This document shows positions 20,111 through 31,395 of a stretch of DNA of 32,059 bases, in pieces (position 1 is the first letter of the stretch; every line of letters begins with the position of its first letter). Where the stretch lies: the NCBI GenBank assembly GCA_019694895.1, contig JAIBBA010000024.1, forward strand, positions 1 through 32,059, read 5' to 3'. Below the pieces are notes generated by a model that worked only from the letters and a program-made list of their open reading frames with translations, had not been told where the DNA came from and did no database searches. The stretch comes from Chitinophagales bacterium (GTDB lineage Bacteria; Bacteroidota; Bacteroidia; Chitinophagales; BACL12). The translations under genes and the position numbers were made by a program.

Positions 20111-20216
20111 TCAGGTATCAGGTATCAGGTATCAAGTATCAGGTATCAGGTATCAAGTATCAGGTATCAGGTATCAAGTATCAGGTATCAGGTATCAAGT
20201 ATCAGGTATCAGGTAT
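20111..20216. repeat. 7-bp tandem array with 21-bp higher-order period
   Basis: Fifteen consecutive copies of a heptamer, TCAGGTA or its variant TCAAGTA, start 20 bases after the porX stop. The variants follow a regular order, two TCAGGTA then one TCAAGTA, giving a 21-bp superunit repeated about four times. This indicates expansion by copying of the triplet, not only of the single unit. Confidence 0.95.
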
Positions 20217-20229
20217 GAAGGATTGGAGA

Positions 20230-20253
20230 TTTGAAGGTTTGAAGGTTTGAAGG
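20230..20253. repeat. 8-bp tandem repeat (TTTGAAGG x3)
   Basis: Three perfect copies of TTTGAAGG follow 13 bases after the heptamer array. They end 17 bases before the recombinase remnant. Confidence 0.9.
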
Positions 20254-26595: not shown

Positions 26596-26937
26596 AGTGT
26601 GGAAGTGTGGAGGTGTGAAAGTGTGCAGCGGAATGCAGGTTTCATAGTGTGACTAAACATGAACACAAACTAGTGTGAAAGTGTGCAGCGGAATGCAGGT
26701 TTCATAGTGTGACTAAACATGAACACAAACTAGTGTGGAAGTGTGCAGCGGAATGCAGGTTTTTCAGTGCACTTCAACACGAACACATGAGCACATGAAC
26801 ACAAACTAGTGTGGAAGTGTGCAGCGGAATGCAGGTTTTTTAGTGCACTTCAACATGAACACATGAACACATGAACACATGAGCACATGAACACAATTTA
26901 CACTTCCACACTTGCACACTTTCACACTTCCACACTC
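26595..26937. repeat. composite repeat island between dinB and dnaE with 15-bp inverted ends
   Basis: The island fills the gap from the last base of the dinB stop to two bases before the dnaE ATG. Its ends are a perfect 15-bp inverted repeat, GAGTGTGGAAGTGTG at 26595-26609 and its complement at 26923-26937. Inside are four tandem copies of a larger unit containing GCAGCGGAATGCAGG, at 26625, 26685, 26745 and 26821. The first two copies are 60-bp units (26614-26673, 26674-26733) identical to each other, the third is 76 bp, and the fourth is expanded by 8-bp GAACACAT repeats. The island contains AGTGTGGA-type octamers in one orientation at the left and the reverse orientation at the right. No unique spacers are present, so this is not a CRISPR array. 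Confidence 0.95.
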
Positions 26938-26939
26938 AA

Positions 26940-29906
26940 ATGTTTCTCAACACCCACTCATATTACAGCTTACGCTACGGGGTTTTGTCGCCGGAGGGAT
27001 TGTTGGCGGAAGCGCAGCGCTGTGGGGTGCATGCGTTTGCGATGACGGATATCAATAATTGTTCGGGATGGTTTGAATTGTATGCGGAGGCGAAGAAATT
27101 TAATATACATGTGGTGCCGGGAGTTGAATTTAAAAATGGTGATGATCATCTGTATATCGGGATTGCAAAAAATGAACATGGCTTTGCAGAACTGAACAGA
27201 TATTTATCGCACTATCTGAATACTAAAGAGCCTATTCCTGCCATAGCTCCTGAATTTGAACATGCCATAATTATTTATCCATTCGTTGCCGATAAGATTT
27301 ATGTTTTGGGTGATAACACATTTGTCGGCATACAGAAAAAAGACCTCAGCAAACTGCGTGTCGGCAAATCGGGGTTGCCACAGGAAAAACTGGTAGCGAT
27401 GCTGCCTGTTACCTTTTCGTCGAAAAAAGATTTTAGTGCACATCGCATATTGCGTGCGATAGATCACAATACCATCATCACCAAAATTCCGGAAAACGCC
27501 ACTGCCCTACCCGATCAGGTGTTCAGGCCGTACGACAGATTGTATGAAGATTTTGGCGATCATGGCTATCTGCTCGAAAATGCAAGAGAGCTGCTGGAAA
27601 ATTGCACTTTTGATTTCACCTATCATACCAATAAAAATATCCGGTCGTTCAGCGGCAATGAGGCTGATGATATCAATCAATTGTTGCAACTCACCTACGA
27701 AGGAGTGAAACGGCGATACGGCAAACTCACCAAGACTATCCAAGATCGCATCAATAAAGAACTGGAGATCATTATACAAAAAGGATTCGTTGCCTATTTT
27801 CTTATCAATTGGGATATTATCCGCTACGCACATAGCAAATCGTATTTTACAATTGGTCGCGGCAGTGGTGCCAACAGTCTGATTGCTTATTGCATGGGTA
27901 TTACCGATGTAGATCCGATAGAACTGGATTTGTATTTCGAACGCTTCATCAATTTATTTCGCGAAACACCCCCTGATTTCGACCTGGATTTTTCGTGGAA
28001 AGATCGTGAAGATGTTACGGATTATATCTTCAAACGCTATGGCGAAGAGCATACCGTTTTGCTGGCAACATATACCACTTTTAAAAGTCGCTCGTTTATC
28101 CGGGAGGTAGCAAAAACATTCGGACTGCCGAAATATGAGATCGATGCGATGATTAAAAATTATGGTGAAAGTATTTTTGGCGACAGCATACAGATTCCCG
28201 ATAAAATTGCACGCAGCATTTATAATTTCGGTGCTTATTTGCAAGGGAATCCAAACTACCTGGGTATCCATGCCGGTGGTATCTTAATATCGGAGTTGCC
28301 GGTGTATTATTATACCGCAACACATCTTCCCCCCAAAGGATTTCCTACCACACAATTCGACATGCATGTGGCGGAAGATATCGGCTTATATAAATTCGAT
28401 ATTTTGAGTCAGCGCGGACTGGGACATATCAAAGAAACCGTAGAAATTGTAAAACAAAATCGCGGTGATGACATCGACATTACACGCGTGCAGGATTTCA
28501 AAAAAGATCCGGTGCTGAATAATAATCTGGTGAAGGGAAATACGATAGGATGCTTTTATATCGAATCGCCTGCCATGCGCAGTTTACTCAATAAATTGTT
28601 GTGCGATAATTATCTCACCTTGGTTGCGGCGAGTTCCATTATTCGTCCGGGTGTGGCGCAATCGGGCATGATGGATGAATATATCCGCAGGCATCGCTTT
28701 CCTGAAGAACGCAAGCGCATACATCCTGTTATGGGCGATATTATGCCCGATACATATGGCGTGATGGTGTATCAGGAAGATGTAATCAAAGTAGCGCACT
28801 ATTTTGCGAAACTCACATTGAGTGAAGCAGATGTACTGCGTCGGGGCATGAGTGGAAAAAGCAGGAGTAAAGATGAATTTCAACGCATCAAAACAAAATA
28901 TTTCGAGAACTGTGCGCAATTAGGTTATGATAAAGCACTTGCCAACGATGTATGGCATCAAATAGAGAGTTTTGCTGGTTATTCATTTGCAAAAGGACAC
29001 TCTGCATCTTATGCCGTAGAAAGCTATCAGAGTTTGCATTTGAAAAGTTATTATCCGCTAGAATTTATGGTTGCCGTAATCAATAATTTCGGCGGATATT
29101 ACAGCACCGAATTATATTTTCACGAAGCGCGAAAAAGTGGCGCCACCATTGAAGCACCGTGTATCAATAACAGCCGGTATAACACTTGCATTTACGGCTC
29201 GGTGATCTATGTAGGATTTGTGCATTTATCCGGACTAGAATCGGCACTCGCTGAGCAAATGCTTGCCGAGCGTGCGCACAATGGGCCTTTTACTTCCTTC
29301 GACAATTTTCTCGATCGCGTGGCCATCAATCTCGAGCAACTGGAATTATTAATCACCATCAATGCTTTTCGCTTCACGGGTATCACCAAACGCGAGTTGC
29401 TGATAGAAGCATATACGCGCATGAACAAAACAAAAAAAACAATTCCTGCCGCTACCTTGTTCGAAAAAAGTGCGCCACCGAAATACACCTTTCCCCCACT
29501 CCACTTCGATGCCCGTGAAGATGCGTGGGATGAAATCAAATTATTGGGATTTCCACTGTCATCGCCCTTCCTTTTAATTAGCGATCCGATTATTGAAAAT
29601 CGCAATTTAAAACTGGTAAAAGATCTGCCGAAATTCGTTGGTAAAACGGTAGAGATCATCGGTTATCTCATCACGACAAAACGCACTTCAACAAAACACG
29701 GTGAGCCGATGTATCTTGGCACCTTCATCGATATGGAAGGCAACTGGTTAGATACCGCGCATTTTCCGGCGGTAGCAAAACAATATCGCTTTAAAGGAAA
29801 AGCTTGCTATCTCCTAAAAGGAAAAGTGCAAGAAAGTTTTCAAGCGCATACACTGATTGTTTCTGAGATGTATCATTTGAAGATGTGGGTGGAGGGGGAG
29901 AATTAG
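26940..29906 (+). CDS. short DNA polymerase III alpha subunit (DnaE-type, error-prone class)
   Basis: A 988-residue C-family polymerase, shorter than the replicative enzyme. It is the type found beside DinB in Bacteroidota and thought to serve translesion or damage-induced synthesis. The N-terminal PHP domain is degenerate: FLNTHSYYS has Asn in the first histidine position and MTDINN lacks the following histidine, so proofreading or metal-dependent activity is unlikely. Catalytic aspartates lie in PPDFDLDFSW (Asp346, 348, 350) and KFDILSQRGLGH (Asp487). GRGSGANSLIAYC is also conserved. An HhH region follows and an OB-fold closes the protein (VEIIGYLITTKRTSTKHG). No ImuA or LexA gene is next to it. 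The TAG stop lies in the first unit of an octamer array. Confidence 0.92.
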   Translation: MFLNTHSYYSLRYGVLSPEGLLAEAQRCGVHAFAMTDINNCSGWFELYAEAKKFNIHVVPGVEFKNGDDHLYIGIAKNEHGFAELNRYLSHYLNTKEPIPAIAPEFEHAIIIYPFVADKIYVLGDNTFVGIQKKDLSKLRVGKSGLPQEKLVAMLPVTFSSKKDFSAHRILRAIDHNTIITKIPENATALPDQVFRPYDRLYEDFGDHGYLLENARELLENCTFDFTYHTNKNIRSFSGNEADDINQLLQLTYEGVKRRYGKLTKTIQDRINKELEIIIQKGFVAYFLINWDIIRYAHSKSYFTIGRGSGANSLIAYCMGITDVDPIELDLYFERFINLFRETPPDFDLDFSWKDREDVTDYIFKRYGEEHTVLLATYTTFKSRSFIREVAKTFGLPKYEIDAMIKNYGESIFGDSIQIPDKIARSIYNFGAYLQGNPNYLGIHAGGILISELPVYYYTATHLPPKGFPTTQFDMHVAEDIGLYKFDILSQRGLGHIKETVEIVKQNRGDDIDITRVQDFKKDPVLNNNLVKGNTIGCFYIESPAMRSLLNKLLCDNYLTLVAASSIIRPGVAQSGMMDEYIRRHRFPEERKRIHPVMGDIMPDTYGVMVYQEDVIKVAHYFAKLTLSEADVLRRGMSGKSRSKDEFQRIKTKYFENCAQLGYDKALANDVWHQIESFAGYSFAKGHSASYAVESYQSLHLKSYYPLEFMVAVINNFGGYYSTELYFHEARKSGATIEAPCINNSRYNTCIYGSVIYVGFVHLSGLESALAEQMLAERAHNGPFTSFDNFLDRVAINLEQLELLITINAFRFTGITKRELLIEAYTRMNKTKKTIPAATLFEKSAPPKYTFPPLHFDAREDAWDEIKLLGFPLSSPFLLISDPIIENRNLKLVKDLPKFVGKTVEIIGYLITTKRTSTKHGEPMYLGTFIDMEGNWLDTAHFPAVAKQYRFKGKACYLLKGKVQESFQAHTLIVSEMYHLKMWVEGEN

Positions 29907-29942
29907 CCGATTAGCCGATTAGCTGATTAGCAGATTAGCTGA
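29903..29942. repeat. 8-bp tandem array (TTAGCCGA family, x5) overlapping the dnaE stop
   Basis: Five octamers, TTAGCCGA twice then TTAGCTGA, TTAGCAGA and TTAGCTGA, begin one base before the TAG stop of dnaE. The stop codon is therefore part of the first unit. Two more units (TTAGCCAA, TTAGCCGA) recur at 30052-30067. Confidence 0.93.
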
Positions 29943-29960
29943 TAAATGCGGAGGAATGGA

Positions 29961-30032
29961 AGTGCGCAAGTGTGGAAGTGTGCAAGTGTGGAAGTGTGGG
30001 AGTGTGGAAGTATGCTAGTGTGCAAGTATGCA
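29961..30032. repeat. 8-bp tandem array (AGTGTGGA family, x9)
   Basis: Nine consecutive octamers related to AGTGTGGA (variants AGTGTGCA, AGTGTGGG, AGTATGCA, AGTATGCT and AGTGCGCA). The same family forms the ends of the dinB-dnaE island, so it occurs on both sides of dnaE. Confidence 0.93.
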
Positions 30033-30051
30033 AGTAAATGGTAACGTTTAA

Positions 30052-30101
30052 TTAGCCAATTAGCCGATTTGGGTTCGCTCTGCGCCTCTGCGCCTCTGCG
30101 T
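30052..30101. repeat. second TTAGCCGA patch and CTCTGCGC x3 octamers
   Basis: TTAGCCAA and TTAGCCGA (30052-30067) are followed after ten bases by three octamers CTCTGCGC, CTCTGCGC, CTCTGCGT (30078-30101). Different unit sequences with the same 8-bp period lie side by side. Confidence 0.85.
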
Positions 30102-30152
30102 GAAAAACCCTCCACACCACAATCACCTGTCACGACTCACCCTTGTTTAATC

Positions 30153-30211
30153 GCGGAGTTTGCAGAGTTAGCGGAGTCACATCAGTCACCACTCACCATT
30201 CACCATTCACC
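30153..30211. repeat. 9-bp (GCGGAGTTT family) and 7-bp (ATTCACC family) repeats
   Basis: Three nonamers, GCGGAGTTT, GCAGAGTTA and GCGGAGTCA, occupy 30153-30179. Four heptamers, AGTCACC, ACTCACC, ATTCACC and ATTCACC, occupy 30184-30211. They complete the non-coding gap between dnaE and fic, in which I see no gene. Confidence 0.85.
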
Positions 30212-30278: not shown

Positions 30279-31322
30279 TTACATAATCGTATACTGCGTG
30301 CCGGAACCCGTACCGTGTTTTTCAATAAGTTTTTTCTCAAGCAGGGAGGAAAGCAATCTAATTACAATCATTCTGGAGAAACCCAACCCTTTTGATATTT
30401 GTCCGGATTTGCAACCGGGATGATTTTGAATGAAACTTACGACTAATTTTTCGCGTGGGAGCAATTGATCTGTTTCAGTTTCATAAATGAGTAGTTTCCG
30501 CTCTAACAATTCCTGAATATTTTTTAATGCGTCAAAAAAGAAATTTACCCAAGTGCTTATATCTATATTCGGACGCAAGGTCTGACAGCTTCGCAGCACT
30601 TGATAGTAAGCATGTTTTCTGCTTTCAATTTCGTGTTCAAAACTGATATATTGAATCCATTTATATCCTGACTTTAATAAGAGTAAAGATGAAAGTAATC
30701 GACTCAATCTTCCGTTCCCATCCTGAAATGGATGTATACTCAAAAATTCATAAGTAAAAACAGCACATTTAACCAGAGGGTGAATCGCGTGTTCATTGTT
30801 GTACCAATTCACTAAGAGCCTCATTGCAGTTTCAGTTTCAACACCCGGTTCAGTTGTTTGAAAAAGAATTTGCCTGGTTCCATCAGTGTACCTGGCCTCA
30901 ACAGCATTGCTATGTTGCTTGTAGTTGCCTTTATGCCATTCATCCTTGGCACTGTACTTCATCAAAATATTATGTAAATTTTTGATGTCGCTTTCTGTAA
31001 TTTTTATTTCTTCAAATTGTTCGGAAATGATATCTAAAGCTTCAAAATAACCAACTACCTCCTGGGTGTCTCTGTCTTCAAGCTTGGAGATATCGATATT
31101 TCTCAATAAAACATCTACCTCTTCATCGCTCAATTTAGACCCTTCAATTCTGGTTGAAGCACCAACACTTCTAACTGTAGCAATTGATTTAAGCTCTTTT
31201 AAACCCTGTTGCTCTCTCCTTTCAATGGCCGTCCAGGCAGCATCAAATCTGTCGATCTGACTAATCAATTTAATCAGCTCCCAGTCTAAATTGAGATTGA
31301 ATATGTATACGTTACTCTTCAT
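30279..31322 (-). CDS. Fic family protein with C-terminal winged helix
   Basis: A 347-residue Fic enzyme, predicted to transfer AMP (or another nucleotide moiety) from NTP to hydroxyl side chains of a target protein. The active-site loop HPFQDGNGR is intact at 197-205, with catalytic His197. The inhibitory motif S/TxxxE(G/N) is present upstream as STRIEG (56-61, with Glu60), which makes this a self-inhibited class II Fic. The C-terminus (about 285-347, SGQISKGLGFSRMIVIRLLSSLLEKK) looks like a winged helix that could bind DNA. No separate antitoxin gene is seen. The target is unknown. The neighbourhood is AT-rich and repeat-laden, so acquisition by transfer is possible but unproven. Confidence 0.93.
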   Translation of the reverse strand: MKSNVYIFNLNLDWELIKLISQIDRFDAAWTAIERREQQGLKELKSIATVRSVGASTRIEGSKLSDEEVDVLLRNIDISKLEDRDTQEVVGYFEALDIISEQFEEIKITESDIKNLHNILMKYSAKDEWHKGNYKQHSNAVEARYTDGTRQILFQTTEPGVETETAMRLLVNWYNNEHAIHPLVKCAVFTYEFLSIHPFQDGNGRLSRLLSSLLLLKSGYKWIQYISFEHEIESRKHAYYQVLRSCQTLRPNIDISTWVNFFFDALKNIQELLERKLLIYETETDQLLPREKLVVSFIQNHPGCKSGQISKGLGFSRMIVIRLLSSLLEKKLIEKHGTGSGTQYTIM

Positions 31323-31333
31323 TATTCAAATTA

Positions 31334-31383
31334 AAATGATATGAAATGATACAATATGATACAAAGTTATACAATATGATACA
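31334..31383. promoter_or_regulatory. five direct 10-bp repeats over the fic promoter
   Basis: Five consecutive 10-bp units related to ATATGATACA (the plus strand reads ATGAAATGAT, ACAATATGAT, ACAAAGTTAT, ACAATATGAT) lie 12 bases before the fic start codon. The period is one helical turn. They overlap the probable -7 box and transcription start of fic, as expected for an operator array bound cooperatively. Confidence 0.6.
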
Positions 31384-31395
31384 AATAATTGCAAA
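31362..31395 (-). promoter_or_regulatory. fic promoter
   Basis: On the minus strand, TTTG (31392-31395) and TAACTTTG (31362-31369) are 22 bases apart and match the Bacteroidota -33 and -7 elements. Transcription would start near 31355, giving a leader of about 33 bases before the ATG at 31322. The -7 box lies inside the 10-bp repeat array. Confidence 0.5.

What the first reader, a model, noticed from the sequence alone, without database searches (positions are those of the whole stretch)
31334..31395. Five helically phased 10-bp repeats cover the promoter of an orphan fic gene
The repeats span the -7 box and the likely transcription start of fic, at exactly one turn of DNA per unit. Class II Fic proteins carry their inhibitory helix in cis, so a separate antitoxin is not expected. 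This protein also has a C-terminal winged-helix-like region that could bind the array and repress its own gene. Fic would then be controlled twice, by the STRIEG motif and by an operator array.
Basis: partly seen in the sequence, partly recalled or inferred. Interest (0 to 1): 0.55.

Follow-up and report, generated by a model that had tools for sequence, protein, structure and literature searches.

The report
Self-read operator array before fic toxin
A toxin-like enzyme gene has in front of it a row of five 10-letter DNA repeats, one per turn of the helix, and in relatives the repeats and the protein's own DNA-reading helix change together, so the protein very probably controls its own gene.

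Summary
In detail: five direct 10-bp units lie at 31335-31384 (fic strand) around a -7 box of Bacteroidota type, beyond every shuffle. Phased arrays stand before most orthologues of this Fic subfamily (best lag 10-12 bp in 87 of 90; 75 of 90 significant alone). Among other Fic genes of the same genomes, 1 of 63 scored as high as most orthologues do.

Unit sequences differ by clade and track the C-terminal winged helix. Of all protein-column by unit-position pairs, recognition-helix residue 322 with unit position 6 is strongest, in training and hold-out sets alike. A rule written beforehand (R gives C, K gives A) was right in 48 of 51 new loci. The window alone of 141 has I321 and a unit reading TGTATC.

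Best explanation: Fic's winged helix binds its own phased operator and represses fic. Fic-HTH autorepression is known (CccR, two inverted boxes). The phased direct-repeat operator with an evolving code is a new variant, not found in nine paper searches. Binding, repression and head-to-tail order are inferred; tree-based tests lack power.

The parts
30279..31322 (-). fic, 347 aa: class II Fic (STRIEG residues 56-61; HPFQDGNGR residues 197-205) with C-terminal winged helix
   Evidence: PADLOC SoFic E 5.6e-46
30282..30473 (-). C-terminal winged-helix part (about residues 284-347), predicted DNA reader
   Evidence: AlphaFold2 helices 289-300, 306-313, 317-329 and strands 333-336/343-346; mean pLDDT 62 for residues 281-290, 83-91 for the blocks after it; structural matches to MarR-type repressors, SlyA-DNA and Z-alpha
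30345..30377 (-). recognition helix, residues 316-326 (SRMIVIRLLSS); residue 322 covaries with the repeat unit, 321 and 317 less firmly
31375..31384 (-). operator unit 1 TTGTATCATA
31365..31374 (-). operator unit 2 TTGTATAACT, deviant; overlaps the -7 box
31362..31369 (-). -7-like box TAACTTTG of Bacteroidota type (consensus TAnnTTTG recalled, from no call)
   Evidence: TAnnTTTG in 74 of 141 orthologue upstreams vs 97 of 1137 control windows, coding and intergenic alike
31355..31364 (-). operator unit 3 TTGTATCATA, probably over the transcription start
   Evidence: start inferred
31345..31354 (-). operator unit 4 TTGTATCATT
31335..31344 (-). operator unit 5 TCATATCATT, degenerate

Best explanation
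The array is the operator of fic, and its reader is the C-terminal winged helix of the Fic protein itself. [quoted passage not shown] Fic is thus limited twice: by its inhibitory helix and by feedback on its own promoter. Shown here: the array, its presence before most orthologues, its rarity before other Fic genes, its covariation with the recognition helix. Inferred: binding, repression, one subunit per unit, head-to-tail order.
For: Best repeat lag is 10, 11 or 12 in 87 of 90 dereplicated orthologue upstreams (61.5, 20 and 5.5, ties split); score >=15 of 22 in 63 of 90 vs 11 of 1955 control windows; hold-out 34 of 51. Other Fic genes from 22 of the same genomes (70 of 146 listed places examined, 66 readable): 0 of 44 with no hit of the subfamily's winged-helix HMM and 1 of 19 with a remote hit score >=15. 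A unit lies within 25 bp of the -7 box in 67 of the 74 loci that have one. Covariation: residue 322 x unit position 6 ranks first of 2002 pairs in 90 training loci (automatic units), first of 1674 in 51 hold-out loci and first of 1722 in all 141 (APC Z 8.8, 8.2, 9.9). In 88 loci with partly hand-registered units R goes with C in 26 of 26 and K with A in 38 of 40. Pre-registered rule (note): 48 of 51 with automatic units; always guessing A would give 36 of 51. Window: sole I321 and sole TGTATC unit of 141. Precedent: CccR represses itself through its HTH (PMC9755527, section 10 part 1 read).
Against: No binding or expression data. Independent-pair tests on a Fic-only tree never go the wrong way for residue 322 but rest on 3 well-supported pairs (not significant). 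Nearest-neighbour prediction of whole units is about the same from the recognition helix (5.88 of 7) as from the Fic domain (5.75). The part of the rule that predicts G was tested in the hold-out by one locus only (L174) and failed, and V322 goes with A by eye in L249, L258, L320 and L322. Automatic calls obeyed the rule in 79 of 90 training loci. Some CGTATCA arrays have no fic beside them (24 of 45 places; 26 of 37 loci). At score >=14, 9 of the 63 other Fic genes pass. SoFic-type proteins are symmetric dimers, which fits direct repeats less simply than inverted ones.
Confidence: 0.82

Rival explanations
1. The array is bound by a different host regulator (or an antitoxin encoded elsewhere) that controls fic; the link with the Fic recognition helix is only shared ancestry.
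For: Arrays of the CGTATCA type also lie away from fic. Unit and Fic-domain distances also correlate given the helix (0.176). Tree-based pairs are too few to exclude shared ancestry.
Against: The top covarying residue of the whole protein is in the recognition helix, in two separate locus sets; unit vs helix correlation given Fic domain and rest of the winged helix is 0.337, 0 of 499 permutations. The other regulator would have to change in step with Fic. The two-unit pattern is unique in the own assembly.
Confidence: 0.1
2. The winged helix binds the array, but mainly as activator or as a store that keeps Fic in a defined assembly (DNA-bound form inactive or active), not as a repressor.
For: DNA stimulates AMPylation by CbFic2 (PMC10628234, passages). 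Many orthologues have a further cluster of units upstream of the -7 box.
Against: Units lie within 25 bp of the -7 box in 67 of 74 loci with a box and on both sides of it in 44, a repressor-like place; CccR represses.
Confidence: 0.12
3. Unselected tandem repeat (slippage) in AT-rich DNA.
For: The window has many short tandem repeats.
Against: 0 of 5000 local shuffles; the same phase in orthologues with different unit sequences; rare at other Fic genes.
Confidence: 0.01

Closest known systems
CccR of Yersinia pseudotuberculosis (PMC9755527; abstract and part 1 of section 10 read)
   Same: Fic domain plus C-terminal HTH; represses its own gene; 10-bp boxes near the promoter; bound by the C-terminal half
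   Different: There two inverted 10-bp boxes 26 bp apart, for which dimerisation is needed; here direct units one helix turn apart (2-8 per locus, median 4), with unit sequence changing across orthologues
SoFic / Sofic (PMC12249575, abstract, introduction and results read; PDB 3eqx, 3zec)
   Same: Class II Fic with N-terminal inhibitory helix and a C-terminal domain; PADLOC SoFic model matches at E 5.6e-46
   Different: Far below NCBIfam's SoFic equivalog cut-off (60 vs 550 bits); no array or DNA binding described in what I read; E. coli Sofic has the 47-aa partner AS1
CbFic2 of Coxiella (PMC10628234, passages)
   Same: Class II Fic with a winged helix that binds DNA; top structural match (8cil, Z 15.4, rmsd 6.1 over 282 residues, tied with SoFic 3zec at 15.2)
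   Different: DNA binding reported with random sequences; reported target histone H3
BldC of Streptomyces (PMC5859096, passages)
   Same: Winged-HTH subunits on direct repeats of about one helix turn and variable number, an Arg reading a guanine of a C-G pair
   Different: Small MerR-like protein without enzyme domain, 9-bp units, many target genes

Membership tests
Class II Fic with C-terminal winged helix (SoFic-like) | Fic motif HPFx[DE]GN[GK]R | tested here: met
   HPFQDGNGR residues 197-205; Pfam Fic 65.4 bits vs cut-off 24; 115 of 141 orthologues strict
Class II Fic with C-terminal winged helix (SoFic-like) | N-terminal inhibitory motif [ST]xxxE[GN] (motif recalled) | tested here: met
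   STRIEG 56-61; motif in 140 of 141
Class II Fic with C-terminal winged helix (SoFic-like) | C-terminal winged helix | tested here: met
   Predicted fold and structural matches; Pfam MarR_2 hit is below its cut-off (21.6 vs 27)
SoFic equivalog (NF046030) | NCBIfam curated cut-off 550 bits | tested here: not met
   60 bits
SoFic anti-phage defence | protection against phage | not testable with these tools
   PADLOC SoFic model match only
CccR-type autorepressor | two inverted 10-bp boxes as operator | tested here: not met
   All five units in one orientation; family-wide 565 forward vs 45 reverse unit copies, though units were called as direct repeats on the fic strand, which favours forward
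CccR-type autorepressor | own C-terminal domain binds own promoter and represses | not testable with these tools
   Covariation is indirect support
Type II toxin-antitoxin pair | adjacent antitoxin gene | tested here: inconclusive
   ORFs of 30 aa or more beside fic were listed and none judged convincing; smaller or distant ones not examined
BldC-like head-to-tail direct-repeat binder | co-oriented units about one turn apart, variable number | tested here: met
   spacing 10 bp 169 times, 11 bp 68 times; 2-8 sites per locus
BldC-like head-to-tail direct-repeat binder | head-to-tail protein contacts on DNA | not testable with these tools
   no complex model was made

The most novel reading that the evidence does not exclude
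The phased array is not just an operator but an assembly template: Fic subunits line up head-to-tail on it, one per turn, and this ordered DNA-bound form sets the enzyme's activity (for example holding subunits apart from the dimer needed for toxicity). The array would then act as both gene switch and toxin store, released when a phage damages or titrates the DNA, and unit sequences would diversify to insulate paralogues and escape phage decoys.
Probability: 0.13. Interest if true: 0.85.

Novelty: new variant of a known kind. Interest (0 to 1): 0.62.

Why it matters
What the winged helix of SoFic-like Fic enzymes does has been open: a role in regulating fic was proposed in 2009 (PMC2686095, passages), shown for CccR, and left for further work elsewhere (PMC7479194, passages). 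Here a subfamily found in Bacteroidota and, from a small sample, on plasmids of Pseudomonadota and Cyanobacteriota carries a readable operator, with a residue-to-base rule that predicts part of the operator of new members. That makes autoregulation of single-gene Fic toxins directly testable, offers a natural set of co-evolved repressor-operator pairs, and suggests an annotation rule: phased 10-bp array plus Fic means self-regulated Fic.

Tried and rejected
Chance or slippage: rejected by shuffles and conservation. General property of Fic genes: of 63 other Fic genes from 22 genomes 1 scored 15 or more (9 scored 14 or more). These came from 70 of the 146 places: 30 given by the tool, 40 chosen by me, mostly away from contig ends. 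Some of the 44 without an HMM hit visibly have another HTH at the C-terminus. Reverse search as proof of exclusivity: it failed as such. Of 37 loci with a CGTATCA triple in 84,980 genomes, 11 stand before a wHTH-Fic and one more before a truncated fic start (L160); by eye the rest are GC-rich tandem repeats, repeats 3' of a gene that looks like mnmE, or arrays without fic. Nearest-neighbour prediction of units: no clear advantage for the helix. Independent-pair sign tests: too few pairs. Structure: the model is good only for the winged helix; much of the Fic core is under pLDDT 50 with 11 aligned rows, so no dimer or DNA docking was attempted. Papers: nine searches (listings seen) showed no description of direct-repeat operators before fic or of a recognition code; the library lacks most subscription papers. 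PDB code 8UQU gave no paper; titles it a Bordetella bronchiseptica Fic N-terminal domain.

Script errors: the first Fic motif expression was wrong and found nothing; corrected. Alignment A2 was of no use and was not used. Hand registration: 27 of 88 training units were re-registered by hand after the protein alignment had been seen and 2 loci dropped (L072, L021). Searches use automatic units for the rule test and the mutual information, but the nearest-neighbour and partial-correlation figures and the counts use hand units where they exist. Dropped before the hold-out count: 15 of 66 new loci (10 already used, 3 short or N upstream, 2 short protein). Dropped before the training count: 12 of 102 (two further copies of the window, two N-filled, two without usable upstream or start, six near-duplicates).

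Full report
What is there. The fic gene runs on the minus strand from 31322 to 30279 (347 aa). Upstream of it, read on the fic strand, lie five 10-bp units: TTGTATCATA, TTGTATAACT, TTGTATCATA, TTGTATCATT, TCATATCATT, from 31384 down to 31335. Lag-10 identity is 31 of 40 positions; none of 200 whole-window and none of 5000 local dinucleotide shuffles reaches that. The second unit deviates where a -7-like box of Bacteroidota type, TAACTTTG (31362-31369), sits (the consensus TAnnTTTG is recalled, and that the window is from Bacteroidota is inferred from its relatives). The pattern of two units occurs nowhere else in the assembly at up to 3 mismatches. The protein has the Fic motif and the class II inhibitory motif STRIEG, and a predicted C-terminal winged helix: helices 289-300, 306-313, 317-329 and strands 333-336 and 343-346. 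That part matches MarR-type repressors, SlyA bound to DNA and Z-alpha domains, while the whole model matches CbFic2 and SoFic.

Orthologues. Searches of 149, 395, 396 and 86 genomes (overlapping sets) and two region fetches gave 102 loci. Six were dropped (two further copies of the window, two N-filled, two without usable upstream or start) and six more as near-duplicates, leaving 90 upstreams. The best repeat lag is 10 in 61.5, 11 in 20 and 12 in 5.5 of them (ties split), while 1955 control windows show no such peak at 10 and 11. A score of 15 or more of 22 is reached by 63 of 90 upstreams and 11 of 1955 controls. By shuffling each upstream on its own, 75 of 90 have p at most 0.05 and 15 do not. 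In the later hold-out 34 of 51 score 15 or more, and the best lag is 10 in 23.8, 11 in 17.8 and 12 in 4.8. Unit copies lie mostly 10 or 11 bp apart, 2 to 8 per locus, 565 in forward and 45 in reverse orientation; units were called as direct repeats on the fic strand, which favours forward. A TAnnTTTG box occurs in 74 of 141 upstreams against 97 of 1137 control windows (coding and intergenic), and 67 of the 74 have a unit within 25 bp, 44 on both sides.

Units differ by clade: CGTATCA, TGGCTCA, CGGATAA, TGGATAA, TGGGTGT, TGGGTAT, TGCGTAT, CTAATAA, TGCGACA and others, which can be laid without gaps in one 7-base register.

Negative control. In 22 of the genomes 146 Fic places were found; 70 were examined, 66 with a readable Fic ORF. 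Three were this family and had arrays (3 of 3). Of 19 with a remote winged-helix HMM hit 1 scored 15 or more, and of 44 without a hit none did, although the control was given the best of up to three start codons; at 14 or more the counts are 3 and 6. So the array goes with this subfamily, not with Fic genes at large.

Covariation. Among all pairs of protein column and unit position, residue 322 (recognition helix) with unit position 6 ranks first: normalised mutual information 0.55 with partly hand-registered units (next 0.38, 88 loci); with automatic units 0.44 in 90 training loci, 0.43 in 51 hold-out loci and 0.43 in all 141, each time first. With the hand-registered set R goes with C in 26 of 26, K with A in 38 of 40, V/G/E/M/L with G in 14 of 14, Y with A in 4 of 4, N with A in 3 of 4; with automatic units the rule holds in 79 of 90. 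Before fetching new orthologues I wrote down the rule. Two further searches (278 and 274 genomes) and one fetch gave 66 loci, 51 usable. The rule was right in 48 of 51, R with C in 14 of 15, K with A in 32 of 33; guessing A throughout would give 36. Fisher p for R against C is 1.7e-10 (relatedness not removed). Exceptions: L170, L174, L175. L174 was the only hold-out test of the part of the rule that predicts G, so that part is unconfirmed.

Further signs, weaker. Of 12 proteins with R or Q at 321, 9 have CTA or TGC at unit positions 1-3 instead of CGG or TGG; L185 and L188 do not fit and L220 is not in register (three of the nine, L016, L022 and L092, were hand-registered). In the R322 group 8 of 10 proteins with K or R at 317 have TGGCTCA or CGGATCA; the window and L084 do not. 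Only the window has I at 321 and only it has T rather than C in front of GTATC among 141. Of seven genomes with more than one copy, three have paralogues with different units (G539, G855, G1072); G068 has near-identical copies with the same unit, and G333 and G357 have copies with the same TGGGTGT unit (by eye).

Limits of the covariation. On a Fic-only tree residue 322 R changes 8 times and position 6 C 9 times; independent pairs never go the wrong way, but only 3 are on well-supported branches, so no significance is reached. Unit distance correlates with recognition-helix distance given the Fic domain and the rest of the winged helix (0.337, 0 of 499 permutations) more than with Fic distance given the helix (0.176), yet nearest neighbours by helix predict whole units about as well as those by Fic domain (5.88 vs 5.75 of 7; exact 14 vs 15 of 51).

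Beyond the phylum. In the plasmid collection 71 records match; I fetched 9, 8 distinct by upstream: lag 10 is best (one tie with 12) in all 8, from Paraburkholderia, Devosia, Methylocystis, Thiothrix, Rhizobium, Stanieria, Chroococcidiopsis and Geminocystis, though weak in Thiothrix. Of 80 IMG/VR loci I examined the first 37; 22 were distinct with enough upstream, and lag 10 is best or tied in 17. There V at 322 goes with A, by eye, in L249, L258, L320 and L322, so that part of the rule is at best local. These proteins carry wHTH or DUF977 hits in Pfam, two of four over the DUF977 cut-off.

Reverse search. CGTATCA-N3-CGTATCA in 396 genomes of the order: 45 places in 37 genomes against 3 for the reversed pattern; 21 places in 14 genomes lie just upstream (within about 400 bp) of a fic. 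The triple in 84,980 genomes: 37 loci, 11 directly before a wHTH-Fic. Arrays without fic include some with the spacing of fic operators in genomes where one search lists no fic at E<=1e-50 (L103, L107, L122, L126, L119): relics of lost fic, or other users.

Reading. The kind is known: HTH control of fic was proposed in 2009 (PMC2686095, passages), and CccR does it with two inverted boxes 26 bp apart (PMC9755527). Direct units about one turn apart recall BldC (PMC5859096, passages). What is new, as far as nine paper searches show, is the phased direct-repeat operator as the habit of a subfamily and its evolving code.

Noticed in passing
L357, L384, L375, L369, L383, L390, L392 (upstream of other Fic genes): Other, remote Fic families with a C-terminal HTH in the same genomes show 10-bp inverted repeats before the gene (for example TAATCGGCTC-N17-GAGCCGATTA in L357 and L384), as in CccR. 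Of 16 loci chosen by eye, these 7 are equalled by at most 1 of 30 shuffles; the other 9 are not exceptional.
   Followed up: partly
L103, L107, L122, L126, L119: Arrays with the spacing of fic operators but no fic beside them, in genomes without a fic hit at E<=1e-50. L103 is from the window's own genus. Relics or other users.
   Followed up: partly
L110, L116, L142, L144, L164 (and L104, L146): GTATCA-type repeats lie just 3' of a gene that looks like mnmE (C-terminus FSKFCIGK or FSRFCIGK; name recalled), in several genomes.
   Followed up: no
L121, L160: CGTATCA arrays in front of a fic-like start whose reading frame does not continue as an intact fic in the stretch held.
   Followed up: no
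window 26596-26936, 29902-30211, 20111-20253: Clusters of short tandem repeats, mostly with 7-8 bp units and longer composite periods, outside the large ORFs seen near them.
   Followed up: no
L009, L053, L057, L159, L161: A branch of orthologues of about 486-495 aa carries an extra C-terminal part of about 140 aa after the winged helix, yet keeps the array.
   Followed up: no
L139, L143: Perfect runs of CGTATCAAAT at contig ends of one Balneolia assembly, cut off by the ends.
   Followed up: no
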